DNA of 22,234 nt from Leucogyrophana mollusca (taxonomy: Eukaryota > Basidiomycota > Agaricomycetes > Boletales), in assembly GCA_021014945.1 (NCBI GenBank), contig MU266689.1, positions 1 through 22,234 of the forward strand, given 5' to 3'. Made by a program: the position numbers and the translations under genes. How positions within the stretch are numbered: position 1 is the stretch's first letter; each line of letters begins with the position of its first letter. Positions 1,506 to 21,265 of the stretch are shown here, in pieces. Under the pieces are notes generated by a model. The model ran no database searches and was not told the origin of the DNA. It saw only the letters and a list, made by a program, of their open reading frames with translations.

Positions 1506-2053
1506 GTTTTTTAAAACCTGTCAGCTCGATGAAACTAACTACCTCATCATAGCCATCAGCACTGCCAATACTCAAAGAGGTGTCAGGACCTCAGATTTAA
1601 GATTCGGCTCGATTAATGATATTCATGACACACAATGTGCTTTGTTCCTGCTATATTTAGATAGACGGAATTAATGGACAAATGATGACGTAGTTTTGCT
1701 TTTCCTGATTGAACTGAGATCTGTAGAGATTGGTGGCAAGCTTATGTGACAAGTCTGTGTCTCTGGCAGACCTGTGTTCTGTGTCTCTGGCAAGTCTGTA
1801 CAGAGCTATCAGCTGCTTTGGGCCATGCATTGACATGTCTAGGTAGAGCTATCAGCTGCTTTGGGCCATGCATTGACATGTCTAGGTAGATTGACAGATC
1901 TCCCTTTGGCCTGGACAGAATTGGACAGGCCTGGACACAGTGCAGTCCGCCCTGGACAGACCTATCCATAAAGAACCATTACTGTGTGCTCTGTGGCTTT
2001 GCCCAGACCTCTCCAGGGCTGCCTAGACCATCCTCAGTTTACTGATGATCACC
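1506..2053. other. Non-coding interval between DUF6532-like gene and element A
   Basis: I see no supportable gene here. The stretch holds low-order direct repeats (variants of CTGTGTCTCTGGCA near 1756-1798), the perfect 2 x 43 bp tandem repeat annotated separately, and several copies of the word TGGACAG around 1890-1960. The dense hairpins typical of element A begin only at about 2054. No LTR matching the one at 8433-8604 is visible, so element A has no recognisable 5' LTR here. Confidence 0.5.
1802..1887. repeat. Perfect tandem duplication, 2 x 43 bp
   Basis: Units 1802-1844 and 1845-1887 are identical. Each begins AGAGCTATCAGCTGCTTTGG and ends TGTCTAGGT. No coding frame uses it. Identity without divergence suggests a recent slippage or repair duplication. 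Confidence 0.9.
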
Positions 2054-2234
2054 AGGACCGGCGTGGGTCCTCGCCTCTGACGAGGCGGATATGTCCACCA
2101 ATGAGGTGGAGCAGTTGTTGATGGAGCCTGTGGGGTGCATGCACTGCATGAGCCATAGCAGTGGCAACTCCTCTCATGGAGAGGAGAGCGAACAGCCCCA
2201 TGCTATGCATGAAGCAAAAGCACCTGAAGAGTGA

Positions 2235-2726
2235 GAATATCGCTACACCATCAGGAGGTACACAGCTACAGGACAGCGTCCCAAGAGGGACGCTCGTGCA
2301 CAGCGGTGCATGGCAGGGTATATTACCCTCAACGGCTTTTGAGCCTACACACTGTTCGACTCTGGGAGCACGACCAACTTGGTCAGCCCCCAGGTGATGA
2401 AGGTAGGGAAGCTACCGGTTTTCCAACTGGATAACCCAGTGACATTGCAACTCGGCTGCGTTGGCAAACTGGATAACCCAGTGACGCTGCAACTCGGCTG
2501 TGTGGGCAGCCATTCCAAAATATTCTACGGTTGCAATGTGACCGCTGCGTTTGGTCCACTCTCAGTGGACCACTACTTCAATGTCACGAACATCGATAGA
2601 TACGACTGCATCGTAGGAAATCCCTGGATGTGTGAACACAGAGTCCTATTGGACTTCGCTAACAACGCCATTGTTATCAATGGTGTACCTATCCCCGCTC
2701 TTACGGAGGGGGAGGAACAGGAGTGA
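2235..2726 (+). pseudogene. Element A retropepsin (aspartic protease)
   Basis: One frame runs from about 2235 (RRYTATGQRP) through GYITLNGF, stops at TGA 2340-2342, and continues as AYTLFDSGSTTNLVSPQV. LFDSGST is the retropepsin catalytic motif (Asp codon 2358-2360). Downstream KIFYGCNVTAAFG and YDCIVGNPWM match the rest of the fold as known in Agaricomycete Ty3/gypsy polyproteins. In that family the residue at the 2340 stop is Arg, so CGA to TGA is likely. A 42 bp in-frame duplication (2427-2510) repeats the peptide LDNPVTLQLGCVG. The frame meets TGA at 2724-2726 and then carries a Lys/Glu/Ser-rich linker to about 2840 (VEVEDEEAPKSASHGG) before the RT frame takes over. It would cleave the Gag-Pol polyprotein, but it is not functional as read. 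Confidence 0.8.
2427..2510 (+). repeat. In-frame 2 x 42 bp tandem duplication in the protease
   Basis: Units 2427-2468 and 2469-2510 each start CTGGATAACCCAGTGAC and differ at a few bases. The multiple-of-three period keeps the frame and duplicates LDNPVTLQLGCVG. Related proteases have a single copy as far as I recall. Confidence 0.85.
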
Positions 2727-2835
2727 CTAGCTCACTCGAAGTCCTCTGGTACCTCTACAAAAGTAGAGCCGGCGAGGACTTCTCGCCCCCATGCCACAAC
2801 AATAGTGGAAGTGGAGGACGAGGAGGCACCCAAGA

Positions 2836-3867
2836 GTGCCTCGCATGGAGGGAGTGCAGTGCAGGCACCGCTCTCACAAGGTAATGTTAGTCACCCGAGG
2901 GGGACCTCAGAGGCCCCTTCAGAAAAATCTGAAAAAGCCAAAAAGAAGTCGAAGAGTACCCCAAGCTGCACCAATGTTGTGCATCCCCAAGAAAAATGGG
3001 AAGTTGAGGACAGTTGTGGACTGTCGTAAATGGAACGATAACACCGTAAAGGATGCTACCCCGTTCCCGGATCAAGATCAGATCCGGATGGATTTAGCTT
3101 GAGCGAAAATTCACTCGAAGATAGATATGGTGAACACGTACAAACAAGTACGTGTTGACCCCGCGAATGTGGTGTCGACGGCCTTTGCAACTGTCCATGG
3201 CACGTTCCTGAGCAATGTGATGCAGCAAGGGGACTGCATTGCCCCCGCTACATTCCAGTGGCTCATGACCACAATATTTTTTGATTATATCGGGGTGCTT
3301 ATGCATGTCTATCTAGACGACATGTTCGTGTTCAGCGATACAATCAAAGAACACGAAGAACACCTGTGTATGGTGTTTGCAAAGCTGCGCGAGGCGCAGC
3401 TATACCTCGAGAAGGAAAAATGCGACTTGTATTCCAAGCGCATGGACTGTCTCAGCCACATAGTGGACGACAAGGGGCTTCATGCCGACAGTGATAAAAT
3501 GGCATGAATTTGTGCTCGGAGAGCAATGCGCTCGTACCATGGGGTACAGCGCTTCCTGGGACTGGTGGGATATCTGGCACAATTCATGCCAGACACATCC
3601 GCGTATACCGGTCCGTTGTCTGGCATGACCAAGAATGGTCACGCGTCCTACTGGAGACCGCTCCATGATAAGTGCCTTGAGTATATCAAGGCACTGGCGT
3701 GCAAATCGCCAATACTTCGGCCTATCAACCTAAAATTGCTTGAAGCAATTTGGTTGATCTGCGATGCCTCAGCATCGGGGCTAGGAGCTTACTATGGGGA
3801 GGGCCCGGATTGGAGGACATGTAGGCCAGCCGGCTTCATGTCCCTACTCGTAAGAGTAGGCAGCTAA
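2836..3867 (+). pseudogene. Element A reverse transcriptase and start of RNase H
   Basis: One frame with two internal TGA codons (3100-3102, 3505-3507). It carries MLCIPKKNGKLRTVVDCRK (motif 1), SKIDMVNTYKQVRV (motif A Asp), GTFLSNVMQQGDCIAPATFQ (motif B) and HVYLDDMFVFSD (YxDD active site intact). Then come LYSKRMDCLSHIVDDKGLHAD, QRFLGLVGYLAQFMP (connection) and IWLICDASASGLGAYYGEGP, the start of RNase H. Both stops fall where the family has Arg (LA-R-AK, KMA-R-I), so both fit CGA to TGA. The N-terminal fingers region is missing between the protease linker and about 2960. RNase H breaks off near 3840 and the frame closes at 3865-3867. The role would be copying element RNA into cDNA. Normal length from protease to integrase is far longer, so deletions as well as stops inactivate it. 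Confidence 0.85.
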
Positions 3868-4076
3868 AGGAAATGCCTGAACCCAGGAGGGTTCAGGCCA
3901 AGGAACTCACACACGCCGCCCCTCAATGAGGGGAATCAGTGCGTGGCCCTTCGAAAGACCCAGGGGGTGGGAAACCAACCCCAGGGACCCTCAAGGGACC
4001 AAGCATGGTGCTCCAAGGAGATGCCACAGTGAGTGGTGATGATGATGACGCATCAACAGTGAGGTTGGTCAACTCA
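3868..4076 (+). other. Degraded linker between RNase H and integrase of element A
   Basis: The rest of RNase H and the integrase HHCC zinc domain should lie here, but the stretch is only about 200 bp and shows neither. It holds strong hairpins: a perfect 10 bp stem with a 4 nt loop (3875-3884 with 3889-3898) and CCCCTC/GAGGGG at 3919-3933. This is an internal deletion of the element. Confidence 0.5.
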
Positions 4077-5190
4077 GTGGCCAACAGACCCTGGGGATTG
4101 GTAGGAATGGACTTCGTGGGTCCATTCCCTGAATCAAAAGGGTACACTACCTATGGGTAGTCCTGTGTAGGTTAAGGGGTACGACTACCTGTGGGTAGTC
4201 CTGTGTAGGTTAACATCAATGGTACACTTGGTACCGGTGAGGACGACCATTAGGGCATCTGAACTAGCTGGTGTATCCGTACGAGAGGTTGTACGACTGC
4301 ATGGGCTGCCTGAGACAATCATCTTGGACACAGATCCCAAGTTCACGTCAAAGTTTTGGTGTGAAACGCATTGGATATTAGGAGTCAAGCTCCTAATGTC
4401 CACCGTGTTCCATCCCCAGACAGATGGAGCGTCCGAAAGATCTATAAGATCAATCGGACAGTTGTTGAGAAGCATGGTGCTCCCAGACCAGACGGATTGG
4501 GCAGATAAAGTTCCCCTGGTTGAGTTTGCAATAAACTCAAGTATCAGCGTGTCAATGGGGTTCACCCCATTCGAACTGAACTACGGATACATGCCTACAT
4601 TTAGCGTAGGCATGCACCCCCAGGAGAAGAACATTGTTCCCGGCGTTTGGCACTTTGTGCGTCAAGCACAAAATAATCTGGCGATGGCGCATGACGCCAT
4701 CTTAGAGAGCTGGGTCAATCAGACCCACTACACTAATCAGCGTAGGCAGACAGAGTATGATTTTCAAGTAGGAGATCTGGTGTACCTGTCCATGAAGAAC
4801 TTATCCCTACCCAAGGGTAGGGCGTTCAAACTATTTCCCAAATACATAGGACCTTACAAGGTCCTGAGTAGGAATGAGGAGAGCTCGAAGTACACACTTG
4901 AGCTCCCTGACATACTTGTCAATAGATGAGTTCACCCCGCGTTCCACGTGGGCGTACTCCGCAAGCACAAACCAAACGACGATGGGTTGTTCCCCCATCG
5001 TGACGCCCAAGTCTATTATGACTTCGGAGACAATGACGAGACCAAATGACTCGTCGACGAGATCAATGCCCACCAGTGGGTGGGCGGGAAATTAGAGTTC
5101 CAGGTTCACTGGAACCTGGGTGAATCTACGTGGGAGCCTTACAACAAGTGTAAGGACTTAGAAATGTGCGACGTTTTTGTCATGGGATAG
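4077..5190 (+). pseudogene. Element A integrase core and chromodomain
   Basis: Residues RPWGLVGMDFVGPFPESKGY open the DDE core. The first Asp is codon 4110-4112, the second 4327-4329 (ILDTDPKFTSKFW) and the Glu 4435-4437 (DGASERS). The last two are separated by 35 residues, the D,D35E spacing. A ~37 bp tandem duplication at 4140-4213 breaks the frame just after GY; the second copy restores the expected frame up to MVHLVPV at 4219. After KNLSLPKGRAFKLFPKYIGP and YTLELP, TGA at 4927-4929 replaces an Arg of the family, and TGA at 5047-5049 replaces what is usually Trp. The C-terminus (LVDEINAHQWVGGKLEFQVH, then WNLGESTWEPYNKCKDLE) is a chromodomain, which directs chromovirus integration to marked chromatin. 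Stop at 5188-5190. Confidence 0.85.
4140..4213 (+). repeat. Tandem duplication of ~37 bp in the integrase
   Basis: Copy 1 (4140-4176) and copy 2 (from 4177) both read GGGTAC..ACTACCT.TGGGTAG followed by TCCTGTGTAGGTTAA. Copy 1 lacks one G of GACTAC. The duplication adds stops and shifts the frame between KGY and the following core strand, so it is inactivating. Confidence 0.85.
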
Positions 5191-6260
5191 AGGAGGCTAT
5201 CGTCACTTGTGACGAATATTTGCACGAGTTGCGAGATCAAGACTCTGAAATCGCAACTCTCAAGGAAGAGTTGGCCATTGCACAGGCACAACTGGCCTCT
5301 GTGGGCATCCCACCGGTTGCTCATGGGGGGCAGCGGAGCGGCGGCTCCTCGAAACCGGTGGGTAGGGGCAAAGCGCCGAGCTTCCCCCTCCCCCCTGATG
5401 TCAAAACCACCCTTGCTCAACAAGGGTAAGACTTCTGATCCGCCCTTATTGGGCCAGGCAATGTTCGTGTCGTACGTAAAACCTCCGACAATGTCCGCAT
5501 CATCAACCAAACCCCCGGCAACGTCTTCATTTCCCACTACCGCAAGCAAGCCCGCTGCGGTCCCAACCTCTGAAAAGAGGAAGGGCCCGCAGCCCCGATC
5601 CCCGTAAAGGGGAAAGGGAAGGACATCTGGAGGGACTCGTCCCCACCAGAGAAGCTGTCTAAGCGGGCCCGTAAACGGTTGAACCAGGAGGTCAACCCAG
5701 CACTCTTTGGATACATCACCGACGAATCCAACTCCAAGGAGGAGTGCGACATGAGGCATGCGATATGAGTATCACGGGAGGAGACAACCCAAGCGGTCTA
5801 TGAAGACAATGGGGCGAGCAGCTCTGTTCCCAACCTGCCATGCAAGACTGTGGCAAGGGTAAGGCAGTCAAGACTGCCCCCCAGGCCGCTGAAGTGCAGG
5901 AGGACGCCCCCGAAGTCCTGCCCGACGAGTCCATATTCTATGGACAAGGTGTGCGACCCCCAGGGTGGCTAGAGGGGGAGCGGGGGAACCAGTTCTTCCA
6001 CTTCAAAGGTGAAAACAACGGGACCTTAGTGGTCCTGATTGGCGGTGATGAGCCTCGTGCACATCTAGGCCCGGATACGACCGATATCCTATGTTTTCGA
6101 CTTCGCCAAGCGCCACAGCATCCAGCAACTGATCCGCGAACGTGACTCCACCTCGGTGACCAGTAAGAAGACTTTGCAAACGCCTGGAGTGCTTGAGGTT
6201 CCTCTGACTCACAAGCACACATTATTCACCTATGCCCTATGCCCTCAATCCTTCCCCTAG
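5166..6260 (+). pseudogene. ORF X: coiled-coil/low-complexity protein, frameshifted, unrecognised
   Basis: I do not recognise this protein. It starts at the end of the chromodomain. The first part (IEEAIVTCDEYLHELRDQD, then SEIATLKEELAIAQAQL) has heptad-like spacing typical of a coiled coil. Next comes a Pro/Ser/Ala/Thr-rich stretch in another frame (KPPTMSASSTKPPATSSFP), then a basic stretch SKRARKRLNQEVNPALFGYI with a likely CGA-to-TGA stop after DMRHAI. A third frame gives GWLEGERGNQFFHFKGENNG and GPDTTDILCF. After a one-base insertion near 6095 it continues with DFAKRHSIQQLIRERDS and VPLTHKHTLFTYALCPQSFP, ending TAG 6258-6260. At least three shifts and one stop make it a pseudogene. The last ~220 bp belong to the segment repeated at 9192-9531. 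An accessory or late-position retroelement ORF is a guess. Confidence 0.5.
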
Positions 6261-6395
6261 GCCCTGGGCTATTCTACCCTCGCATTGCAAGCGTCCCTGA
6301 CGCTCTGGCTGGCACGCAAGCACCCCTGTCCATCAAATGAGGCGAGTCAGCATCGACCCACATCAAGTCCGATCGCCCTTGACCCAGGGCACCAC
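6045..6395 (+). repeat. Dispersed repeat, copy 1 (shared with 9192-9531)
   Basis: About 350 bp align with 9192-9531, both beginning GATGAGCCTC.TGC.CATCTA and including GCCACAGCATCC, CGCAAGCACCCCTGTCCATC and ATCAAATGA. I judge identity by eye at about 85%. It covers the C-terminal part of ORF X and 135 bp beyond its stop. Similarity ends near GGGCAC at about 6395. Confidence 0.85.
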
Positions 6396-6902
6396 TATCC
6401 GCATTCCCAATAACTTGGGCGACTGGTCTCAGACCTGATCGCAATCCAGTCTACTGTTGTCCTAGCGGTCTCAACCAACGACTTCGACAACCTTGTTTGC
6501 TTTCCGATTGCATTTGCATCTGGGCGGTCTCACTTGGTTATACTTGCTCGCTGTGTATCTCGACCAGCGATTGAGTTGTATCCTATACTAACCAAACCCC
6601 CTTTCCCCTCACTGACCCTGGCTGTCACCCAGTCAAGACTCAGATCCTAGTCGTAGATCCTCGCACCCCTCAGACTAGTTCCACAGGTAGCCTATCTACA
6701 AGAGACTCAACCCTCCTTTCCTGTTCCTCCCTTGCATCCCAGCAGCCCTACAGCTCAGTAATCAGACTCGCTCGCCGACCGCTCGCACTCACTTGCACGG
6801 TTGCAGCGCCCCTAGTCTCTCACTAGCAGACCAACTGTTTGTTTGTTTGTCCTTTAGGTTTTGGGTTTTGCCTCTAGGCCCGCCCACAAGCGCATCAGTG
6901 GT
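6261..6902 (+). other. Non-coding stretch upstream of ORF Y
   Basis: No ORF here has support. The first ~135 bp are the tail of the dispersed repeat. The rest is C- and T-rich on the plus strand (CCCCTTTCCCCTCACTGACC near 6600, CTCCTTTCCTGTTCCTCCC near 6713) and contains TTTGTTTGTTTGT at 6839-6851. CT-rich leaders are common upstream of fungal genes, so this may be the promoter or leader of ORF Y. The hairpins of the rest of element A are absent. Confidence 0.4.
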
Positions 6903-8147
6903 ATGGAAAACCGCTTCTCCGGCACTGCTAGACTGCGCGTGGAGACCACCATGGCCAACGGGGCCCCACCTTCCCTTGACGGCGCCTGTCAAGACACCAT
7001 TCCGCTATTTAACACATATGCGGAATGGTGTGGATTCTTTGCACGTGCGTGTGACCCACGCTTGCATGACGTAGAGGCAATCTTCAAGATCAAACGCTAC
7101 GTTGTGCATGCGCAACAGGCCTCCCCGAGGACTTGGATCCGGGCCGTGGTCCTGGAGGAGTGGAGGACTCCCAATTGGTGTGCCAAGTGGAGAGAAGACC
7201 ACCCTCCTGCGGCACCCTCGGGTGCCACCAATCGTTCTAATGTGCCTGCCCGAGGCATTCACCCTAAGCCGGTGAAGAAAGAGGGCGCGTTGCCTCAACC
7301 CAGGCTCACTTCCACTCCACAGGAGTGGAAGGACTGGATTGAATTCTACTCGAAAGAATTCAATGGCATTCCACTTGAGGGTGGAACTGTTAGCCTGCAT
7401 GACATGAGGGGTCATATCCTCATGTCACGCCTCAACCCCACCTTCAAGAAGGGGACCAGCGAACGGAGGCGTACCATATTCCGGTACCACCTCTGCCTGT
7501 TGGCCCTGGTACCGGGGTTGTACCATGAGTATCTGGCCATGTTCACATGGCCCATTGCCCCAACATTTGAACCCACGCGGTTCAAAGGACACATCGACAA
7601 CCTGACGGAGGACGGCGTTGCCCAGCACCTAGCGCAGTGCAGGGTATCCTTCCACCAGGTTGATGACATTCAACCCTACACACAACACTGGCTGTTGTGC
7701 TGTCTGGACACCTGCCATGGGTTCCTGACGGATGACAAACACGCCGTCCTCAGCGAACGCCTGGCGATTGCGGCATCCCTGGACGCGTGTACCACCCTCT
7801 CGCTCAAGGGACATGCCGAGCTCGAGATGATCGCGCGCGAGCAAGGGACCAAGCTCCCCGACGCTGCTCCCACCTCGAGACTATTCTCGTCATTTGACAA
7901 CAAGCAGATGAGCCTGCTGGCTGATCGCCCCACCGTGCACAATTTAGTCACAGCTAGTGCAACATCTGGGCTTGTTGCCGGGGGGTTCGCCGCCAACAAT
8001 CCGTTGGCCGACGTGGACCACAAAATGGCCATGGTTGTCCCCAACAACAAGCAGCAGCTCATCATCGGCCGTCCCCATGATTCTCCCCCCCTGGCGAGGG
8101 GGCAGTCTCTCTCGACTACGGAGAGGGAGATGTACCCGTCAACATGA
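6903..8147 (+). CDS. ORF Y: intact 414-residue protein of unknown function
   Basis: I chose ATG 6903 (MENRFSGTARLRVETTMANG). The frame is also open upstream to 6861 without another ATG. It runs to TGA 8145-8147 uninterrupted, unlike everything else in element A. Visible parts: an N-terminal region (residues ~30-90) with IPLFNTYAEWCGFFARACDP and ASPRTWIRAV; a Pro/Ala/Ser-rich linker (~100-135, including KPVKKEGALPQPRL); a central region rich in Trp, Tyr and Phe (EWKDWIEFYSKEFNGIPLE, RYHLCLLALVPGLYHEYLAM, WLLCCLDTCHGFLTDDKH); and a Gln/Asn/Ser C-terminus. I see no signal peptide, zinc knuckle, protease or polymerase motif. It keeps an in-frame CGA codon at 7251-7253. The polypurine tract and LTR follow 275 bp downstream. 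A divergent gag or accessory retroelement protein is possible. The coding call is strong; the function is unknown. Confidence 0.7.
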   Translation: MENRFSGTARLRVETTMANGAPPSLDGACQDTIPLFNTYAEWCGFFARACDPRLHDVEAIFKIKRYVVHAQQASPRTWIRAVVLEEWRTPNWCAKWREDHPPAAPSGATNRSNVPARGIHPKPVKKEGALPQPRLTSTPQEWKDWIEFYSKEFNGIPLEGGTVSLHDMRGHILMSRLNPTFKKGTSERRRTIFRYHLCLLALVPGLYHEYLAMFTWPIAPTFEPTRFKGHIDNLTEDGVAQHLAQCRVSFHQVDDIQPYTQHWLLCCLDTCHGFLTDDKHAVLSERLAIAASLDACTTLSLKGHAELEMIAREQGTKLPDAAPTSRLFSSFDNKQMSLLADRPTVHNLVTASATSGLVAGGFAANNPLADVDHKMAMVVPNNKQQLIIGRPHDSPPLARGQSLSTTEREMYPST

Positions 8148-8422
8148 GTGTTGATGCCACCAACCTCCCTGGTGACCCAACAGGTCACCCCAATGCCCCC
8201 GCTAATGAGGCCCCACCCTCGTGAGCGCTTTATCATCCACACTACCCTAGGGTAGCATCTGTTTCTCTTTTTCTTTCTCTTCTCATTCTCTCTCTACTTA
8301 AAATATGCAAGTACCCTAGTGGTACTTGCTCTCTGTACTACTTCTACCTAGTACATTACTGTACCACCACCCGTGCGTCTCAATACGCACTGTTAAAATT
8401 ATGAGAGTCCCAAGGGACTCTA
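8148..8422 (+). other. 3' untranslated stretch of element A with stacked hairpins
   Basis: No gene. It holds perfect hairpins or palindromes at 8171-8189 (GGTGACC/GGTCACC), 8242-8255 (14 bp palindrome CTACCCTAGGGTAG), 8307-8329 (GCAAGTACC/GGTACTTGC), 8373-8390 (GTGCGT/ACGCAC) and 8404-8421 (AGAGTCCC/GGGACTCT), plus a CT-rich run near 8262-8298. It leads directly into the polypurine tract. Confidence 0.6.
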
Positions 8423-8432
8423 GTGGGGGGAG
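8423..8432 (+). promoter_or_regulatory. Polypurine tract of element A
   Basis: GTGGGGGGAG lies immediately before TGTAAGGGG, the LTR start. This is the expected place and composition for the plus-strand primer of a Ty3/gypsy element. Confidence 0.7.
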
Positions 8433-8604
8433 TGTAAGGGGCTGTTACCCTTTTAGGGTGACAGCTCATATATTCACTCCTATCTACTATTAATACCTAC
8501 AAAACCTTATTTACAGTATCATTGTACTTTCACTTACTTACCATCAAATACACCAAGCGGTTGTGTTAGTGGTCTGAGTGAATAAGTATAACAAAACCGT
8601 TACA
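8433..8604 (+). repeat. 3' LTR of element A (172 bp)
   Basis: It begins TGTAAGGGGC right after the polypurine tract and ends ..CCGTTACA, giving TG..CA ends within a 5 bp inverted repeat (TGTAA/TTACA). A hairpin with one G-T pair sits near the start (8441-8450 with 8456-8465). The 3' boundary is inferred from these ends because no partner LTR exists in the window, so no target duplication can be checked. Confidence 0.6.
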
Positions 8605-9191
8605 TCGTCGCTGCAACATTTTACTGCCAGCCCTTTAGTGATTGGTTTGGGCACCCACCTGCTGTCCCTCATGGCCTTCCTGACACCCGCACATGTTTGC
8701 TGCTCATGTTTCCTGGGGCATGTTAGAGGTTTGTGCTACCCTTTCATTGTTCTTTGCATTCTGTTTGCGTTTCCACCCTTGTACTATAGCATTTTGGTTG
8801 TTACGTGAATGAATGAATTGCTTGCTAGCTTTCCTTGTGTCATTGAGGGTGGCCATGTGAAGTACATGCACTTTGGTCCCCTCCATATAACAAGGTAAGT
8901 CTATCCTACTACTCTTGTTTTACTTTCTCCAGCGCTGACAGATGTCTTTCAGGTGCCCAAAGCCTTGCAGGATTACTAAGTCCAGGTCCCCCATCAAGGC
9001 ATCTGCTCAATTGTCTCCCCGTCAATGGTTTGACGTTGTGGGTGGCGTCCCTGCCACACTTCGCAAGTTATAGTTAATCCAGAACCTCACCTGGTCATCC
9101 CAGGTGGTAGCCAACTGACATTTGTTGATGCTGACAGTTGTCATCCACAGCGAAGAGCGTCAACAGCATCATCTCACCACGAGGATGACGA
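8605..9191. other. Gene remnant with one consensus intron; otherwise empty
   Basis: I see no intact gene. At 8811-8894 a frame reads LASFPCVIEGGHVKYMHFGP and meets a consensus donor AG|GTAAGT at 8895 with acceptor TTTCTCCAG at 8932. A short open frame follows (SPRQWFDVVGGVPATLRKL, stop near 9073). These may be exons of a decayed gene; I cannot name it. The run at 8641-8800 encodes a hydrophobic stretch that I do not consider real. Confidence 0.3.
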
Positions 9192-9531
9192 TGATGAGCC
9201 TCATGCCCATCTAGGCCCGGATACGACCAATATCCTATGTTTTTTGACTTTGCAAAGCGCCACAGCATCCGGCGACCGATCCACGAACGTGGCTCCACCT
9301 CGGCGACTGGTAAGAAGACTTTGTGAATGCTTAGGGGTCTTTGAGTTCCTCTGACTCACAAACACACGTCATTCCCCTATGCCCTTAACCTTTCCCCTTT
9401 GCTCAGGGCTTCTCTACCCTCACATTGCAAGCATCCCCGACGCTCTGGCTGGCGCGCAAGCACCCCTGTCCATCAAATGAGAGTCAGTGTCAACCCACGT
9501 CAAGTCTGATTGCCCTTGACCCGGGGCACTG
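9192..9531 (+). repeat. Dispersed repeat, copy 2 (decayed ORF X fragment)
   Basis: This is the counterpart of 6045-6395. The peptide corresponding to DFAKRHSIQQLIRERDS is recognisable as DFAKRHSIRRPIHERGS but is out of frame with the upstream part and stops at TGA where copy 1 has CAA. It is isolated from any chromovirus coding sequence. Confidence 0.8.
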
Positions 9532-13129: not shown

Positions 13130-13320
13130 TGGAGTGGTGCCAACTGGCACAGCGACAATCCTGTCGTGGATGGAGTGATCAACCTCTAAGTCTGTACACG
13201 CTGTGTATCTACTTGTCCGGCTGTAGCCAGCTTACTCAGCTATGCCTCTAAACCCTCTCACAACCCCTCTACAACCCCTTCCAACCCTAACCCTAACCCC
13301 TCTCCAGCCTAACCACCACA
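13130..13320 (-). repeat. 3' LTR of element C (191 bp)
   Basis: Minus strand: starts TGTGGTGGTTAGG, ends GGCACCACTCCA. It matches 18973-19163 at 188 of 191 positions, the differences being 13193, 13194 and 13229. It contains a telomere-like CCCTAA run (13281-13300 on the plus strand) and the hairpin GTGCCA/TGGCAC. The integrase stop codon lies inside it (13309-13311). Confidence 0.95.
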
Positions 13321-15012
13321 AGTACCCCCCACACATATGCGACACTCCCAGGTCGTATCTCGAAAAGGAGTGCCCACAGGAGGAGCAGTGGTTGGGAGCG
13401 TTGTCCGTGGCACAATGTTGACACCTAGAACCATCTCTTCATTGTCCAAATCTCCGTGTTCATTGTCGGCCTGTGGCCCACTCTCATCAACCAGACTCTC
13501 ATCCCCTCCGTCGCTACCTTGCGAGATCGCTAGTCGTTGAGCTTCGTTGGCCACGCTCTCTGCCTCAGCTAGAGCTGTTCCTGTTCTCAGTATAAACCGC
13601 CGTAATCTCCGCGCGTGGAAGTAACCTGCGATAGGGAAGCCCTCCAGCATAGTGAGCATGTACGAGTTGAGATGGCGCGACTGTACGCGGTGGGGTGCTG
13701 ACCACCGCGGGATGATCCTTCGTGAGGTTCTGAAGGTGCTATCAACATTGTTAGCGTAGATCTGCACGAGTTGACCCAGCTTGAAAACTACTTCTCCGGT
13801 TCCCGAAGTCAATACTTTGCGGTCAAATGCTGCCTTGTGACGGATGGCGTGTTCCACACTGTTTGCCAGGCCATCCAGCCGTTGCGGTGAGATGTACGCT
13901 GAGTGAACGTTGACATTGGATGTGGAGGGAGGTGACAGTGTTGCGTCGTGAGGTGTACACGGTGTGTCGACAACCAGCCCAAGCATGAGTTCTTTGGGCA
14001 AGAATTTGAACAAGGGGAGAACACGCTCATTCAGATGCTCGATGGCTGCGTCGAAGTGGTCTGGCCAGTGCTTGGGGATGCTGTCTGCATCGACTTCCTC
14101 GTAGTCATCCTCCCCGAGGCCTGGTGCGCACATGCGCCTCAGGCGGCCCAACAGTTTGCTGTTTGTTCCTTCCACCAACCCATTTATCCACAGCGCGTGG
14201 GCTGACGTGACATGGTGTTGCATGTTGTGAGCCGTGCACCACATGTTGACAAGTTTGTTACCAAAGTGTGATCCGCCATCCGTCATGAACGATTCTGGTG
14301 CGTGAAAATTGTGTCGGATTTTGGTCAAACAGTCGACTGTGGACTTAGCTGTTCCGTGCGTCTTCAACCTGAATCCCCACACATATTGTGAATACGTGTC
14401 GATGAAAAGGGCGATGGTGTGAAAACCGCCCTTGCCCGCTGGCATGCTCAAGTAATTGGCGACGATCAGCTCGAATGGGTGCCTACGTATGATGGGCTCA
14501 AGCAGGGAGTGCAAATGGGTGGGGCCGAAGTTCTTGCAAGGGCCGCATTCCGAGATGGCGGTTGCAATGGAACGGTCAAGGTGGGGTGAGTATATGTGGT
14601 CCATCAGCTGGAGCTTAATCATGTCCCTTCCCCAGTGCCCGCGAGACCGGTGCTCTTGCCGTGCCATCTCAACGGCTTCCGCCTGCATGATGCATTCCAA
14701 CCTACTATGAACGCGTGTGCTTGAATTATTGGGTACTCGCCATAGCTTGCCGTCACGGATAAAGAAGAACTTTGTGCAATGACCCGCACGGTGCTTGTCC
14801 CTGATTGGCCTTTCACGGTCTAGATCCAGAATTGTGTTAACAATTTCGAGAAACAGTGGCTCCTTCTCAAAGCGCTCGCGAAGTGCCAGGGCCGAAGAGT
14901 CAGTAGAATCCACCATAAATAGATCATAAACAATTCCGCGTGCCTGTTCCCAGTCTTCACTCACAGTCCACTCGCCCCCATCACCCGGGGACTGGGGGAC
15001 TGTAGCAAACAT
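13309..15012 (-). pseudogene. Element C integrase
   Basis: A continuous 567-codon frame; it really begins a little upstream, at HVNTAADGLSR near 15060, after a frameshift from RNase H. Residues ~115-155 carry the zinc-binding pattern (EHRSRGHW ... CGPCKNFG). In the DDE core, residue 186 is Asn (FELIVANYLSMPAGKGG, codon 14455-14457) where the family has the first catalytic Asp. Asp245 (FMTDGGSHFG) and Glu281 (NGLVEGTNS) are kept with 35 residues between. GCC-AAT from GCC-GAT is a CpG transition. The C-terminal part has LGQLVQIYANNVDSTF and a Glu/Asp/Ser-rich tail ending in the 3' LTR. There is no chromodomain. The enzyme would insert cDNA, but with Asn186 it should be inactive. The frame itself is fully open. 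Confidence 0.88.
13321..13334 (-). promoter_or_regulatory. Polypurine tract of element C
   Basis: Minus strand GTGTGGGGGGTACT abuts the 3' LTR start TGTGGTGG, the expected site for plus-strand priming. It is also translated as part of the integrase C-terminus. Confidence 0.65.
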
Positions 15013-15017
15013 CCGGC

Positions 15018-16400
15018 TTAAGCCGTCAGCGGCGGTGTTGACGTGCCCAATCTGTGGCGTATATCAGTAATGTGATAGGCAAGAATCCTATCACGCCACC
15101 TGGCGTGAACCACGTTAAGTTTTGAACTGAGCAGCGTGTCCCGAAGGGCCTGGCAGTCCATCTCAATCTCGACGGCTGATCCCCAAATAACGTTGGAGAA
15201 TTGATCTAACACAAACTTCAGTGCAGCAAACTCAAGGATATAGGGCTTGTACTTAGCTTCGGTGGGGGACGTTCGCTTCGAAGCAAACGCAATGGGATGT
15301 ATGGCTGTGACCTGCTTGCCCAATGGTAGGATGCTGGTGTGTCTTTACTCGAGGACAGCACCATACCCATCTTTCGACCCATCCGACGTTACAATGAAAG
15401 GAGTGCCGTCAAAGCGAGGGCCTTTGAGTATGGGTTCCGAAAGCAGCAAGCGTTTCAAAGCCATGAACGTTTTGGAGTGCCGAGTGCCCCAGCGCTTGCC
15501 TAAGGTGGTTGTACGCAAATGTTGACGATAGTGTTGCTTTCCAACCTTTTGGCCTCCTGGTGGTGTGCCGAGCCTGCGGACTAAGTTGGTAAGGGGCGCC
15601 GCGATTCGAGTGTAATCTGTGATGAGCGAACAAAAGTACCCTGTGAATCCAAGGAATTGCATTAAGTTGTGAAGGGTGGTGGGAACAGCCCAGTCCGCAA
15701 CCACTGTGAGCTTGGCTAGGTCTGGTCGGATGCCATCACGACCAATTCTGGTGCCTGCAAATATCGCCTCTGTCATGAACAGTTGTGTTTTCTTTGGGGA
15801 AAGTGACAGTCGTTTTTCCCGAACGTGTTTAAAGAACTTACAGAGGTGCTCGAGTTTTTCATCAAAGTTGTTTCCGGCCATCCCCGTGTTGTCCACATAT
15901 AGTTCATATAGCAACCCGATCTGATCCTGCAATGCAGTAGCAGCCATATCTCCAAACGTGGTAGGAGCCCCTGTGAGTCCGAATGGTATGCGGCAGTAGC
16001 ACTCATACCCCCATCCCTCAGTATAAAAACATATGTACGGTTGTGTCTCCTCGTCAACTGGGACTGCATAAAATCCAGCTGCAATCCAGCGGTGCCCACA
16101 AAGGTGTTGCTGTTTCTCACGAATATCCCCTTGAGGGAGTGGAGGTATTTGGCTAGCACGGTTAACCTCCGCGAAATTCTGGCATATGCGCCATTTAGGC
16201 GCTGCGGTAGGAATGCTAGAGCCAGCTGTGTCCAGCGTAGGTCGAGGTGGTAAGTCCTCGTAAGACGGTAAGCCCAGTTTGTGTCAGCATATGCCTCAAC
16301 ATCCTGAGGTAGAGCATCTGGGGCAATCTCGTAGACAAAGTGTTCGCCCACACGCACGGGACCGGCACATGTGCTGGGTGGTGAAGAAGTGTTAGTGGTG
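15018..16400 (-). pseudogene. Element C reverse transcriptase and RNase H
   Basis: The minus strand carries GEHFVYEIAPDALPQDVEAY and RRLTVLAKYLHSLKGIFVRN. After a frameshift near 16100 come HRWIAAGFYAVPVDEETQPY, GYECYCRIPFGLTGAPTTFG, LYELYVDNTGMAG, REKRLSLSPKKTQLFMTEA, GRDGIRPDLAKLTVVADW and LMQFLGFTGYF. RNase H follows with VTSDGSKDGYGAVLE, TAA at 15345-15347, then FASKRTSPTEAKYKP and DCQALRDTL. The RT active site reads YVDN instead of YVDD (Asn codon 15888-15890), and the motif A Asp expected after HRW appears lost with the indel. The TAA fits CAA to TAA. A further frameshift near 15060 leads into the integrase. The enzyme cannot be active. Confidence 0.87.
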
Positions 16401-16559
16401 TCCATTGGTACAGTAATGACAAGGAATGTAGGAACTGGGGAGTTGGGTGATGGGGGTATGTACATAGGAGATGTAATTTTACTATGTGGCGTGTTCTGTT
16501 TGATTGTGTGGGAAGTGGAATTATTCACAATGGGCGGCAGTACGTCAGAGGTTGTATCC

Positions 16560-17578
16560 ACAGGCAATGGGGATCGACGGGCAGGAGGCATACGGCGAGG
16601 CCGCGGCCCAGCGCCCGAGGTGGTGTCCCAGGTATTAGTAATGGTAACGTGATGGGGGGAATGGGGGATGGTGATGGTGTCTGAGCTATAATCGTGCACT
16701 GCGTGTATTTGTTCTAGTAGAGGTTTACCAATAAGGACGGACCATTGGCCCCCACTTGAAAAAACTTCGAACAAGGTTGAAATATCCACCGTTCCCCACT
16801 TGACGGTGCCATGCCACATACCTTTGGATGGTACAACTGACCTGTCTGCCATTCAGAGGGTTCGCGTCGATGGCATTAGTGGGAAAAGTCTGCATGACAC
16901 CTTTTCGTATGCGCTTATGTCTATGGTGTTAACCATTGCGCCGTCATCGACATTCGCGTGAAACAACGAAGATATGCCCTTAGTGGGCCCATACAGGCAA
17001 ATCAGGGTTACGAATGGGGTGCTTTCCCCTGGAGATCCCGGCCCATGTCCAACCACATACAGATCAGTAGGTTGGATTGCAGATGAGATAAGTACTGGAC
17101 TCAGCGCTACTGGTTCTGTGACTACAACATGTTCAACCGACGCGGACGTAGACGTTTTGGTTACAGGAGCAGTCAAGTGGCATGTCAACTGAGGTTCCAC
17201 AGCTGTAGTAGCATCAGCGTTAACAGAAGAAGCAAGAGGTGAAGAAGGATCAAGCAGAGAAACCGTAGCGAAGGGGGAAACAGGTTTGATCATAGGCAGT
17301 ATGGAATCAACGTCAAGGTCGTCAGAAGTGGAAACAGAAGCAGAAAGAGGCACCAAAGCAAGGTCAAAACTGGACATGGATGCAGAGACAGGAACTGAGG
17401 CATTGTCAAAGTCAGAAGGGTTGAGAGAAGCAGAGGATGGAATTTCGGAGATAGTCACCACTAGATCCAACGGCGACGACCCTCCCGAACTAGAGTCAAG
17501 CCTCGCTATGACAGCCTCCATACTGTCGTCCGATGCTGGGGCTGGGAATACCACTGATGGAATGTGATAATCATCCAT
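16560..17578 (-). pseudogene. Element C start of pol: low-complexity leader and aspartic protease
   Basis: ATG 17578 (MDDYHIPSVVFPAPASDDSM) opens a frame 73 nt before gag ends, in the -1 phase relative to gag. A Ser/Asp/Pro/Val-rich leader of about 190 residues precedes GPTKGISSLFHANVDDGAMV. VDDGAMVNTID is the retropepsin catalytic motif in the DDGA form used by this lineage. TGA at 16853-16855 falls between STRTL and MADRSVVPS, where the family has Arg (CGA to TGA). The frame then continues with WSVLIGKPLLEQIHAVHDY, the end of the protease, and a long Pro/Ser/Thr linker to RT. I see no slippery heptamer in the overlap, so pol may use its own ATG or another mechanism. Confidence 0.8.
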
Positions 17579-19038
17579 CTAACGAAAGGCGGGTAGGGTT
17601 TGTCAATGGTGGGTAGCGTGTCTATGCCGTGCTGAGAATGCCAGTCCTGTACTTGCTTCATGTACGCCTGTCGGCCTGCCTCCGTGTCTGGGTGATGTGG
17701 CAGGTTCGTACACTGCGCTGCAGCACGAAGACGGTCAGCGGCTGACAAGCGCGTGGGTGATGGGGTTTGCGGGTATTGGCTTTGCCCAAAACGATGGAAC
17801 AGATTGGTGTTGGCCATTGGTGAGTTTGTTGCGAATGGATTTGGGCCCGCGGCTGCCTGGGGCATTATGGGCATAGGCAGAAGCTGGGTTTGCTGACGCA
17901 TAGGTTGTTGTTGTATGAAAGCTGGTGGTGGAGCTGTCTGCTGCATGGTGGGGGGAGTGGGAAGAGGAAGTGGGCGGGTTGCTGGGCGATAGGCAGGCAT
18001 GGGGGAGTACGTGGTGTTTGCGGGTTGCTGTTGGCCATTTGTCCGAAACATTGATGATTGTAGTTGGTCCTTGAGTCATTCCACTTCCTCCTGAAGGAGT
18101 CGGTCGGCAGCTGCACGTTCCTTTGCCCGGTTTAGCTGTGCGGTGGAGACACGACTCATGTCAGCCAGAAACTCTGCCCACGAGGCGTATTGCTCTGTCA
18201 GGTGGTCTCGAATAATGTATGGGACGCCTAACATCACAATGTCCAAATGTTGACATGTTGAGCCCCTGAATCCCTGCGCGAGTCGAGATACTTGGCGTGC
18301 ACAGTGTATGTGGCCCCAGTCCCATCTGCGCTCATCCTCTATCATGGTGCCGATATCTTCCTCTTTGAGAATTATCGCCCACAAGCATTCTCGTTGCTGA
18401 GCTGCTGAGAACTGAATTGCAACCGGGGGCGGCCAACAAACGTTAAAGGCGCTTTCAAAAGTCGCCCAGTCAGCTTTATCCGCGGGAGTCAGTGTTTGGA
18501 ACCAGGTCTCGGCTGCGCATTGAAGACCGAACCGCACTATTTTGTCAGCGTAGCCTCACGCGAGCGGAAGTCCGAGTTGGAACTGGCGAAACCATTCCGT
18601 GGGCTCTTCACTGTGCTGGTAGTCGCCATGAAACGTGGGTTGTACTGGGATGATAGACATAGAAGCTAGACTAGATGGAACAAAGCTAGTCGTACTAGCA
18701 GTGGTGGTGACGGGATGCGCAGTGACTGCGAGGGATGGTGGTAGAGTCGCCTGAGTAGCAAGCTGTTGTCGTATGTAACGTAGGTTAACCACTAATGCTG
18801 TGGACGAGGTGGGATGCGGGGATGTGATGTTGACTAGAGAGGACTCAGAAGAAGTTTGCTGCCTTGGTCTGACAGGCGAAAAAGAAGTGAAGTTGACTGC
18901 TGAGTGGTTGCGGAGCCGCGCAACGTCGTCGATGCTGGGGGCCGTGGCTCGGATCGACCTCGTGTCACCAGGTGGAGTGGTGCCAACTGGCACAGCGACA
19001 ATCCTGTCGTGGATGGAGTGATCAACCTCTAAGTCCAT
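17506..19038 (-). pseudogene. Element C gag
   Basis: A single frame of ~510 codons split by two TGA codons (18556-18558, 18076-18078). ATG at 19036-19038 lies inside the 5' LTR; the peptide runs out of the LTR through the primer-binding site (VGTTPPGDTRS). Capsid-like residues follow: PVQPTFHGDYQHSEEPTEWF, FGLQCAAETWFQTLTPADKA, WATFESAFNVCWPP, VMLGVPYIIRDHLTEQ. A coiled-coil-like stretch (LNRAKERAAADRLLQEEVE) comes next, then a Gln/Pro/Met-rich region and HPDTEAGRQAYMKQVQDWHS. No CCHC zinc knuckle is visible before the end at 17506. The 18076 TGA could derive from CGA; the 18556 one is ambiguous between Arg and Trp. Gag would form the particle that packages element RNA. Confidence 0.75.
18958..18970 (-). 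promoter_or_regulatory. Primer-binding site of element C
   Basis: Minus strand TGGTGACACGAGG lies two bases inside the 5' LTR end. It begins TGG as required to pair with a tRNA 3' CCA end. I cannot say which tRNA without a tRNA set from the genome. The same bases encode part of gag. Confidence 0.65.
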
Positions 19039-19163
19039 ACACGCTGTGTATCTACTTGTCCGGCTGTAGCCGGCTTACTCAGCTATGCCTCTAAACCCTC
19101 TCACAACCCCTCTACAACCCCTTCCAACCCTAACCCTAACCCCTCTCCAGCCTAACCACCACA
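18973..19163 (-). repeat. 5' LTR of element C (191 bp)
   Basis: Partner of 13130-13320 with three differences (19036 C/T, 19037 A/G, 19072 G/A relative to the left copy). It carries the gag ATG at 19036-19038; the left LTR has lost it because of two of those differences. The telomere-like CCCTAA run lies at 19124-19143. Confidence 0.95.
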
Positions 19164-20843: not shown

Positions 20844-20861
20844 GATAATACATGGAGGAAA

Positions 20862-21265
20862 ACTAATAAAAGCGGTCACTACAAATGATATACTAGTCTT
20901 ACTGATGTTTTACTAGTAATTACTAATAAAAGTGGTCACTACAACTTATTTACAAGTGTTTGTTAGTCTATTATAAGTAACTACTAATAAAAGTGGTGAC
21001 TACAAAGCATTTACTAGTGTTTACTAATGTTTCACTAGTCATTGATAGTGTTCACTAGCATTGGGTAGCCCATTATAAGCAATCATTGATAAGAGCAGTG
21101 TTTATTAGTGTTTGTGAGTGTTTGTTAGTCTATTATAAGCAATTATTGATGAAAGCAGTGTTTACTAGTGTTTACTAGTATTTGTTAGTTCATTATAACT
21201 GATTACCAATCTATGGAGTCACTACACACCATTTACTGGTCTCGACTAGCCTTTCACTAGCACTT
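20862..21265. repeat. Degenerate ~60 bp minisatellite
   Basis: Related units begin at 20862, 20922 and 20983 (ACTAATAAAAG.GGT.ACTAC) and at 21085, 21145 and 21205 (ATTGAT/ACCAAT variants), with spacings of 60, 61, 102, 60 and 60 bp. Units contain the submotif TTTACTAGTGTTTACTAAT and ..TATTATAAGCAAT. AT-rich, non-coding, starting 18 bp after the stop codon of the preceding gene. Confidence 0.85.

What the first reader, a model, noticed from the sequence alone, without database searches (positions are those of the whole stretch)
2054..8465. Dense array of short perfect hairpins written into the coding sequence of element A and ORFs X and Y
Inverted repeats with 7-12 bp perfect stems and mostly 2-9 nt loops recur every few tens to a few hundred bases. 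Verified stem pairs: 2168-2175/2179-2186, 2276-2282/2287-2293, 2553-2560/2564-2571, 2823-2829/2836-2842, 3133-3141/3148-3156, 3383-3390/3394-3401, 3671-3680/3686-3695, 3733-3740/3744-3751 (extended by 3724-3730/3752-3758), 3843-3849/3854-3860, 3875-3884/3889-3898, 4104-4112/4120-4128, 4377-4384/4390-4397, 4520-4527/4533-4540, 4590-4598/4606-4614, 4654-4660/4666-4672, 4683-4689/4695-4701, 4805-4812/4815-4822, 4848-4855/4858-4865, 4979-4986/4994-5001, 5100-5107/5112-5119, 5137-5143/5149-5155, 5254-5260/5267-5273, 5409-5415/5421-5427, 5863-5869/5872-5878, 6994-7005/7020-7031, 7211-7217/7220-7226, 7338-7346/7356-7364, 7400-7409/7418-7427, 7535-7542/7545-7552, 7566-7573/7579-7586, 7681-7687/7693-7699, 8171-8177/8183-8189, 8307-8315/8321-8329, 8404-8411/8414-8421. 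For random sequence, 8 loop lengths times 4^-7 over ~5.5 kb predicts about 3 stems of 7 bp or more. They run through protein-coding frames, so codon choice accommodates them. Possible causes (inference): genome-scale ordered RNA structure of the retroelement RNA, template-switch (quasi-palindrome) correction during reverse transcription, or foldback RNA interacting with silencing. I know of no such description for chromoviruses.
Basis: partly seen in the sequence, partly recalled or inferred. Interest (0 to 1): 0.88.

Follow-up and report, generated by a model that had tools for sequence, protein, structure and literature searches.

The report
Hairpin-riddled retrotransposon family
A family of Ty3-type jumping elements in one genome, probably a fungus, carries a small perfect hairpin about every hundred bases, mostly inside its protein-coding genes, while the host DNA and other Ty3-type elements sampled from that genome do not; the pattern fits copying errors made when a strand folds back on itself, though selection for folded strands is not excluded.

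Summary
All 35 stem pairs checked (34 listed, one extension) are exact. Window 2054-8465 has 43 perfect hairpins (stem >=7, loop 2-9) against 2.9 in dinucleotide shuffles. The element is a Ty3-type LTR retrotransposon: "element A" and "ORFs X and Y" are one degenerate copy, split by a hairpin-free insertion (6047-6900) and ending in a 172-bp LTR (8433-8604). Seventeen pieces of this family, two of them the window's own, are enriched 6-53 fold, and two further relatives 11.4 and 7.5 fold; four other Ty3-type elements and two host stretches are not. Synonymous-codon shuffles do not explain it (113 against 7.6 over nine ORFs). The hairpins are discrete: stems of 6 or more, loops mostly 0-7, 5'-C/G-3' closing pairs preferred, so they really fold. 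G-U is no better tolerated than A-C, and both strands fold about equally. Individual hairpins turn over. Three loops are exact inversions between copies. I favour arm-correcting template switching during reverse transcription (0.5) over selection for folded RNA or ssDNA (0.35). Covariation and one-arm conversion signals are weak or absent.

The parts
2048..6046 (+). Ty3-type element, first part of the window copy (protease to integrase/SH3 and the start of the 3' ORF region); hairpin-dense, 32 hairpins vs 2.2 expected
   Evidence: Copies L009, L011 and L012 align from 2048 on; count and 20 shuffles
2343..2726 (+). Retroviral-type aspartyl protease (RVP_2) frame
   Evidence: Pfam E 5e-05
3103..3507 (+). 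Reverse transcriptase fragment (RVT_1)
   Evidence: Pfam E 8.9e-21
4171..4929 (+). Integrase C-terminal frame with Tf2-1-like SH3 domain; 9 hairpins vs 0.19 in synonymous shuffles (counted on 4171-4926)
   Evidence: Pfam E 3.9e-09
6047..6900 (.). Insertion into the element, without hairpins; not part of the element
   Evidence: 6046 and 6901 are adjacent in L036, L037, L040, L042; 0 vs 0.37
6901..8432 (+). Ty3-type element, second part: long 3' ORF of no Pfam family (stop-to-stop frame 6858-8147 begins in the insertion) and 3' untranslated part; with the LTR it has 11 hairpins vs 1.0
8433..8604 (+). 3' LTR, 172 bp, TGTAAG...GTTACA, preceded by a G-rich stretch; no perfect hairpin of 7 bp
   Evidence: Ten copies including this one share the 3' end with unrelated flanks; 12 of 31 matches listed start at 8433; sequence
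3671..3695 (+). Hairpin, 10-bp stem, loop GTATA; stem intact in L010, L011, L012, one pair off in L013, 5 of 10 in L014
3101..3116 (+). Hairpin site where the window and L012 carry 16-nt segments that are exact reverse complements of each other (4 differences)
4805..4822 (+). Hairpin, 8-bp stem identical in the five relatives compared; loop AA in four of them and TT in L036
8171..8189 (+). Hairpin with one pair exchanged on both sides (G-C here, A-T in L010, L040, L042, L045, L041)
8307..8329 (+). Hairpin with an invariant 9-bp stem in seven of eight relatives and a strongly varying loop
7309..7331 (+).

Best explanation
The hairpins are true fold-backs that arise and are kept perfect by intramolecular template switching while the element is copied, most likely during reverse transcription. 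A strand folds on a short imperfect palindrome, one arm is copied from the other (or the whole hairpin is copied inverted), and synthesis returns to the normal template. Over many rounds this acts as a mutational drive that fills the element with short perfect hairpins; purifying selection on the proteins lets through mainly palindromes that codon degeneracy can absorb. Shown: the array, its excess over synonymous shuffles, its restriction to one clade among the sequences sampled, signs of physical folding, strand symmetry, three loop inversions, turnover of single hairpins. Inferred: that reverse transcription is the step, and that conversion rather than selection built the array.
For: Perfect Watson-Crick arms without G-U tolerance (G-T 359 vs A-C 368 of 6870 cells; shared states 71 vs 73; stems with one internal mismatch, de-duplicated, G-T 16, A-C 27, other 27). 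Folding z about equal on both strands. Stems of 3-4 bp near background, stems of 6 or more far above it, loops mostly 0-7. C-G closing pairs 63% vs G-C 3% for stems >=7 with loops 2-3, n = 92 with copies pooled; 85 vs 40 once per group. Enrichment in all 17 family pieces and two more relatives, none in element B, L048, L057, L058, L055, L056: a host-wide cause would not spare these. Three exact loop inversions among 7 wholesale loop changes, one of them part of a 16-nt in-place inversion. Density persists while single hairpins turn over. Codon-position register 69/39/39, the bias reported for Nematomorpha palindromes.
Against: One-arm clusters of 3 or more changes are rarer in stems than in controls (0.6% vs 4.4%). 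Positions changed on both sides are no more frequent than in control pairs (2.60% vs 2.75%), and their Watson-Crick share is only 0.62 vs 0.53. No consistent left/right arm polarity (118 vs 100 differences; one of four outgroups opposite). Loop inversions also arise in host DNA replication (yeast, PMC8604942), so they do not point to RT. Stems are kept better than expected from ascertainment alone (no difference in 0.56 of comparisons vs 0.24 in controls, whose half-rate value would be about 0.49), which selection would also explain. In groups found in two or more copies the register bias is not significant (p 0.14).
Confidence: 0.5

Rival explanations
1. Selection for a generally folded nucleic acid (RNA genome or single-stranded cDNA) keeps many interchangeable hairpins, in the manner of genome-scale ordered RNA structure; the benefit might be compaction, packaging, nuclease resistance or evasion of silencing.
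For: Folding z about -4 in element copies and about 0 in element B and L048. Stems kept better than control pairs in L039a, L038 and L013. Loops vary more than stems. Closing-pair preference. Loops slightly purine-rich (difference 0.036, interval 0.002-0.070). Sense strand folds slightly better in L042 (z difference -0.69, se 0.41).
Against: No G-U tolerance and a G-U share below shuffles. Antisense strand folds about as well. No tetraloop signal (GNRA 3 of 46 four-base loops, UNCG 0). Loop inversions are not expected from it. Selection on ssDNA of either strand would escape the G-U argument.
Confidence: 0.35
2. A host DNA process (replication or repair switching, or gene conversion between arms) acts on integrated copies and for some reason only on this family.
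For: Template switching at short inverted repeats is known for host polymerases in yeast (PMC8604942). The inversions seen could be of this origin.
Against: Two host stretches (10 kb) have 0 hairpins vs 3.5 expected together, and four other Ty3-type elements of the genome are near background. Copy-specific changes in stems look like ordinary decay.
Confidence: 0.07
3. Each hairpin is a specific functional site (regulation, packaging, protein binding).
For: Some hairpins are conserved across most copies, e.g. 8307-8329 and 8404-8421.
Against: 191 groups with unrelated sequences; 77 seen in one copy only; in L014 at about 67-72% identity stems are kept no better than control pairs (0.471 vs 0.519), while L014 has hairpins of its own (18 vs 2.9).
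Confidence: 0.05
4. Chance, base composition or assembly artefact.
For: None found.
Against: Dinucleotide and synonymous shuffles; recurrence in copies on many contigs.
Confidence: 0.01

Closest known systems
Coding palindromes of Nematomorpha mitochondrial genes (PMC6649704; abstract, Discussion and passages read)
   Same: Perfect inverted repeats inside functional protein genes, gained and lost over time, few imperfect ones, codon-position register 1-1 favoured; the authors discuss template switching or repeat conversion.
   Different: There mitochondrial and long (up to 284 bp); here nuclear, in an LTR retrotransposon, 7-13 bp stems, loops mostly 0-7, spaced by a mean of about 97 bases (L010).
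Template switching at short inverted repeats in yeast genes (PMC8604942; abstract and one Results section read)
   Same: Short perfect inverted repeats in coding DNA, spacer inversions of 2-5 bases, short spacers favoured.
   Different: [quoted passage not shown] here a dense array confined to one element family, inversions with arms of 8-9 bp, and arm conversion not shown directly.
Genome-scale ordered RNA structure of RNA viruses (recalled; seen here only in a search listing)
   Same: Pervasive predicted folding through coding sequence without strict conservation of single stems.
   Different: Here Watson-Crick stems without G-U tolerance, about equal on both strands, in an integrated retroelement.
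Ty3-type LTR retrotransposons, chromovirus group
   Same: LTR, protease, RT, RNase H, integrase, Tf2-1-like SH3; RT matches yeast Ty3 best among solved structures.
   Different: Hairpin array; an additional 3' ORF of about 500 aa without a Pfam family (L010); weak chromodomain match.

Membership tests
Ty3-type LTR retrotransposon | Domain order protease, RT, RNase H, integrase | tested here: met
   (in L010; RT best matches yeast Ty3 among solved structures)
Ty3-type LTR retrotransposon | Long terminal repeats with TG...CA ends | tested here: met
   172-bp LTR at 8433-8604 with many partial or solo-like matches; no copy with both LTRs intact was established, and the window copy has only the 3' one
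Chromovirus | Chromodomain at the integrase C-terminus | tested here: inconclusive
   Pfam Chromo E 0.073, 13.4 bits against a cut-off of 25.1, in one of two proteins tried; motif recognised by eye only
Genome-scale ordered RNA structure | Folding energy well below shuffles through coding sequence | tested here: met
   Mean z -4.31, -4.15, -4.42 in L010, L012, L042; about 0 in two controls
Genome-scale ordered RNA structure | Sense-RNA pairing (G-U tolerated, sense folding better than antisense) | tested here: not met
   dilution by decay after insertion limits the mismatch test
Template-switch corrected palindromes | Spacer inversion between copies | tested here: met
   3 exact reverse complements among 7 wholesale loop changes; 16-nt in-place inversion
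Template-switch corrected palindromes | One-arm multi-base homogenisation | tested here: inconclusive
   Candidate sites, but no excess over controls
Template-switch corrected palindromes | Conversion occurs in reverse transcription | not testable with these tools
   Only indirect: other sampled sequences of the genome lack the array
Nematomorpha-type coding palindromes | Perfect inverted repeats within protein-coding sequence beyond codon-preserving expectation | tested here: met
   Nine ORFs, 113 vs 7.6
Nematomorpha-type coding palindromes | Long arms (most over 15 bp in the published analysis) | tested here: not met
   Stems 7-13 bp

The most novel reading that the evidence does not exclude
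Palindrome drive: one lineage of Ty3-type retrotransposons has a reverse transcription cycle that keeps rewriting its own genome into short perfect hairpins, so that 10-17% of the sequence lies in perfect stems (seven pieces) and its proteins are written around them.
Probability: 0.45. Interest if true: 0.87.

Novelty: new variant of a known kind. Interest (0 to 1): 0.78.

Why it matters
If conversion built the array, this family is a natural many-copy record of fold-back template switching by a reverse transcriptase, and of how coding sequence absorbs a strong mutational drive. If selection built it, it is an unusually dense folded retrotransposon genome. Either way the question is testable, because several subfamilies share the property and the other Ty3-type elements sampled in the same genome do not.

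Tried and rejected
Chance or composition: rejected by dinucleotide and synonymous shuffles. Selection on sense RNA in its classic form: not supported by mismatch counts or strand comparison. Compensatory substitution as proof: weak, because paired transitions keep complementarity anyway (control 53%). Arm polarity as a test of minus-strand conversion: no consistent bias. Template-switched clusters: 26 reverse-complement hits vs 14 reversed and 5 complemented among 3305 clusters from ordered pairs of copies, not de-duplicated. In-place inversions: 45 loci vs 27 reversals and 0 complements, but 40 of the 45 have only two differences and can be two independent transitions; with three or more differences 5 vs 2; with length 10 or more 8 vs 1. 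Only the three that span a hairpin loop are used as evidence. A fourth exact reverse-complement loop differs at one base only and is not counted. Fixed differences between two 3' subfamilies: 3 of 158 stem, 2 of 33 loop, 15 of 596 other columns, too few. Loop composition and tetraloops: no clear signal. Rfam: no match at gathering scores. Relatives in viral contigs: none confirmed for the RT query. A first near-perfect-stem table had an empty de-duplication through a script error and was redone. Protein homologues elsewhere: the search was not run, so nothing is known here of other hosts.
Full report
OBSERVATION. All 35 stem pairs checked are exact. Across 2054-8465 there are 43 perfect hairpins (stem >=7, loop 2-9) against 2.93 (sd 1.55) in 60 dinucleotide shuffles; for stems of 10 or more, 5 against 0.02. 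The rest of the window is at or up to about three-fold above expectation on small counts (2 vs 0.97, 6 vs 2.15, 3 vs 2.55, 6 vs 1.92). Synonymous-codon shuffles of nine ORFs give 7.6 hairpins in all against 113 observed, and none of 100 shuffles of any ORF reached its count (two ORFs are the window's, seven belong to L009, L010 and L012, and some are orthologous, so they are not independent).

WHAT THE ELEMENT IS. The region is a degenerate copy of a Ty3-type LTR retrotransposon. Protease, RT and SH3-type domains are found in the window; protease, RT with RNase H, integrase and SH3 follow each other in copy L010. Its RT best matches yeast Ty3 among solved structures. A chromodomain is suggested by eye but weak by Pfam. 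Ten copies, this one included, share the same 3' end with unrelated flanks, and 12 of 31 matches listed elsewhere begin at window 8433, so the LTR is 8433-8604. Window positions 6046 and 6901 are adjacent in L036, L037, L040 and L042: A and X/Y are one element split by an insertion. The copy is cut at 2048 and lacks about 400 bases near 3843 and again near 4085 that are present in other copies. The probable gag region lies further 5' in other copies (L012 998-2842, by position; no Pfam match).

WHO HAS THE HAIRPINS. Seventeen pieces of this family, two of them from the window, are enriched 6.2 to 53 fold (20 shuffles each; some pieces include flanking DNA, and the highest value rests on a short piece). 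Relatives L053 and L054, of other subfamilies, are 11.4 and 7.5 fold (loops 0-7). Controls: element B 0.9, L048 1.3 (1.8), L057 1.8, L058 1.5; host stretches L055 and L056 zero against 2.17 and 1.37; four stretches on contigs that carry copies, outside them, 0 to 2.0; the insertion zero; the window's other parts 1.7 to 3.4 fold on 2 to 5 hairpins. Among the sequences sampled, the property belongs to one clade. The host sample is only 10 kb.

WHAT THE HAIRPINS ARE. Pooled over six copies, stems of 3 and 4 bp are within about 1.4 fold of the long-loop background, while stems of 7 and 8 bp with loops of 2-7 exceed it about 8 to 26 fold, those with loops 0-1 about 4 fold, and little is left at loops 8-9. 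For stems of 7 or more, 5'-C/G-3' closing pairs make 63%, 52% and 61% and G/C pairs 3%, 27% and 11% at loops 2-3, 4-5 and 6-7 (n = 92, 150, 61; copies pooled), against 28-29% and 28-30% for stems of 1-2 bp. Once per orthologous group it is 85 C-G to 40 G-C, with 215 to 202 in chance stems. I read this as physical folding. Stem GC is 0.567 against 0.524 in the flanks. In coding frames the register that pairs codon position 1 with 1 is favoured, 69/39/39, p 0.002; in groups seen in two or more copies 45/30/31, p 0.14. The Nematomorpha paper reports the same preference.

RNA OR DNA LEVEL. Mean folding z, sense and antisense: L010 -4.31 and -4.20 (29 windows), L012 -4.15 and -3.97 (16), L042 -4.42 and -3.72 (16), element B 0.31 and -0.04 (30), L048 -0.11 and 0.23 (20). 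In the three element copies G-U pairs are rarer than in shuffles on both strands. Mismatch states in stems are G-T 359, A-C 368, others 270 of 6870 cells; shared by two or more copies 71, 73, 40; by three or more 41, 31, 18. Many are decay after insertion, which dilutes the test, but shared states show no clear G-U preference either.

CONSERVATION AND TURNOVER. The 488 hairpins form 191 orthologous groups, 114 of them in two or more copies. Stem pairs survive better than control pairs in L039a (0.774 vs 0.541), L038 (0.658 vs 0.560) and L013 (0.727 vs 0.653), not in L014 (0.471 vs 0.519); the 95% intervals clear the control for L039a and narrowly L038 but not L013 or L014. In L038, 10 of 28 are perfect or one pair off, while others keep only 2-4 pairs. 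Hairpins are thus inherited, lost and replaced while the density stays.

MECHANISM. Two explanations remain. Conversion by fold-back template switching explains perfect Watson-Crick arms, strand symmetry, short loops, clade restriction and loop inversion. The inversions are AA/TT at window 4805-4822 in L036; CCA/TGG in L010, at a site the window copy lacks; and AA/TT within a 16-nt in-place inversion with four differences between window 3101-3116 and L012. Of 131 distinct loop changes of two or more bases, 7 alter every base, 3 of these are exact reverse complements, none is a reversal, and two (the AA/TT cases) are complements as well. Against conversion: one-arm clusters are not in excess, covariation is hardly above control, arm polarity is inconsistent. 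If switching happens only in reverse transcription, copies that differ mostly by decay after insertion would show few events; that is an inference. Selection for folded strands explains density and conservation, but not, if RNA is the target, the lack of G-U tolerance.

PRIOR WORK. Eight literature searches listed no paper whose title or abstract start describes dense perfect hairpin arrays in the coding sequence of LTR retrotransposons. The library holds open-licence papers only, and four listings were shorter than the number of papers found. The nearest papers are PMC6649704 (abstract, Discussion, passages) and PMC8604942 (abstract and one Results section).

VERDICT. Real, striking, confined to one clade among what was sampled, and not described in what I could search. 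The mechanism is open between a mutational drive and structural selection, with the drive slightly favoured.

Noticed in passing
13130-19163, minus strand: A second Ty3-type element (RT and integrase domains) with LTR-like ends 13130-13320 and 18973-19163 that are 98% identical. It has no hairpin excess and served as a control.
   Followed up: partly
6040-6341 and 9186-9481: Two direct repeats, 82-91% alike, about 3140 bases apart; the first lies mostly in the insertion that splits the hairpin element.
   Followed up: no
20850-21253: Diverged repeats with a spacing of about 60 bases, 62-82% alike.
   Followed up: no
1788-1873, 2418-2501, 4146-4213: Short direct duplications of 30-43 bases with adjacent or near-adjacent copies, 86-97% alike; the last contains a hairpin.
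   Followed up: no
around 3843 and 4085: The window copy lacks about 400 bases at each place that other copies (L010, L011, L012 at the first; L009, L012 at the second) have.
   Followed up: partly
L012 257-3914: The 3' end and LTR of one copy are followed at once by the 5' part of the next, as if two elements shared an LTR (or through mis-assembly).
   Followed up: no
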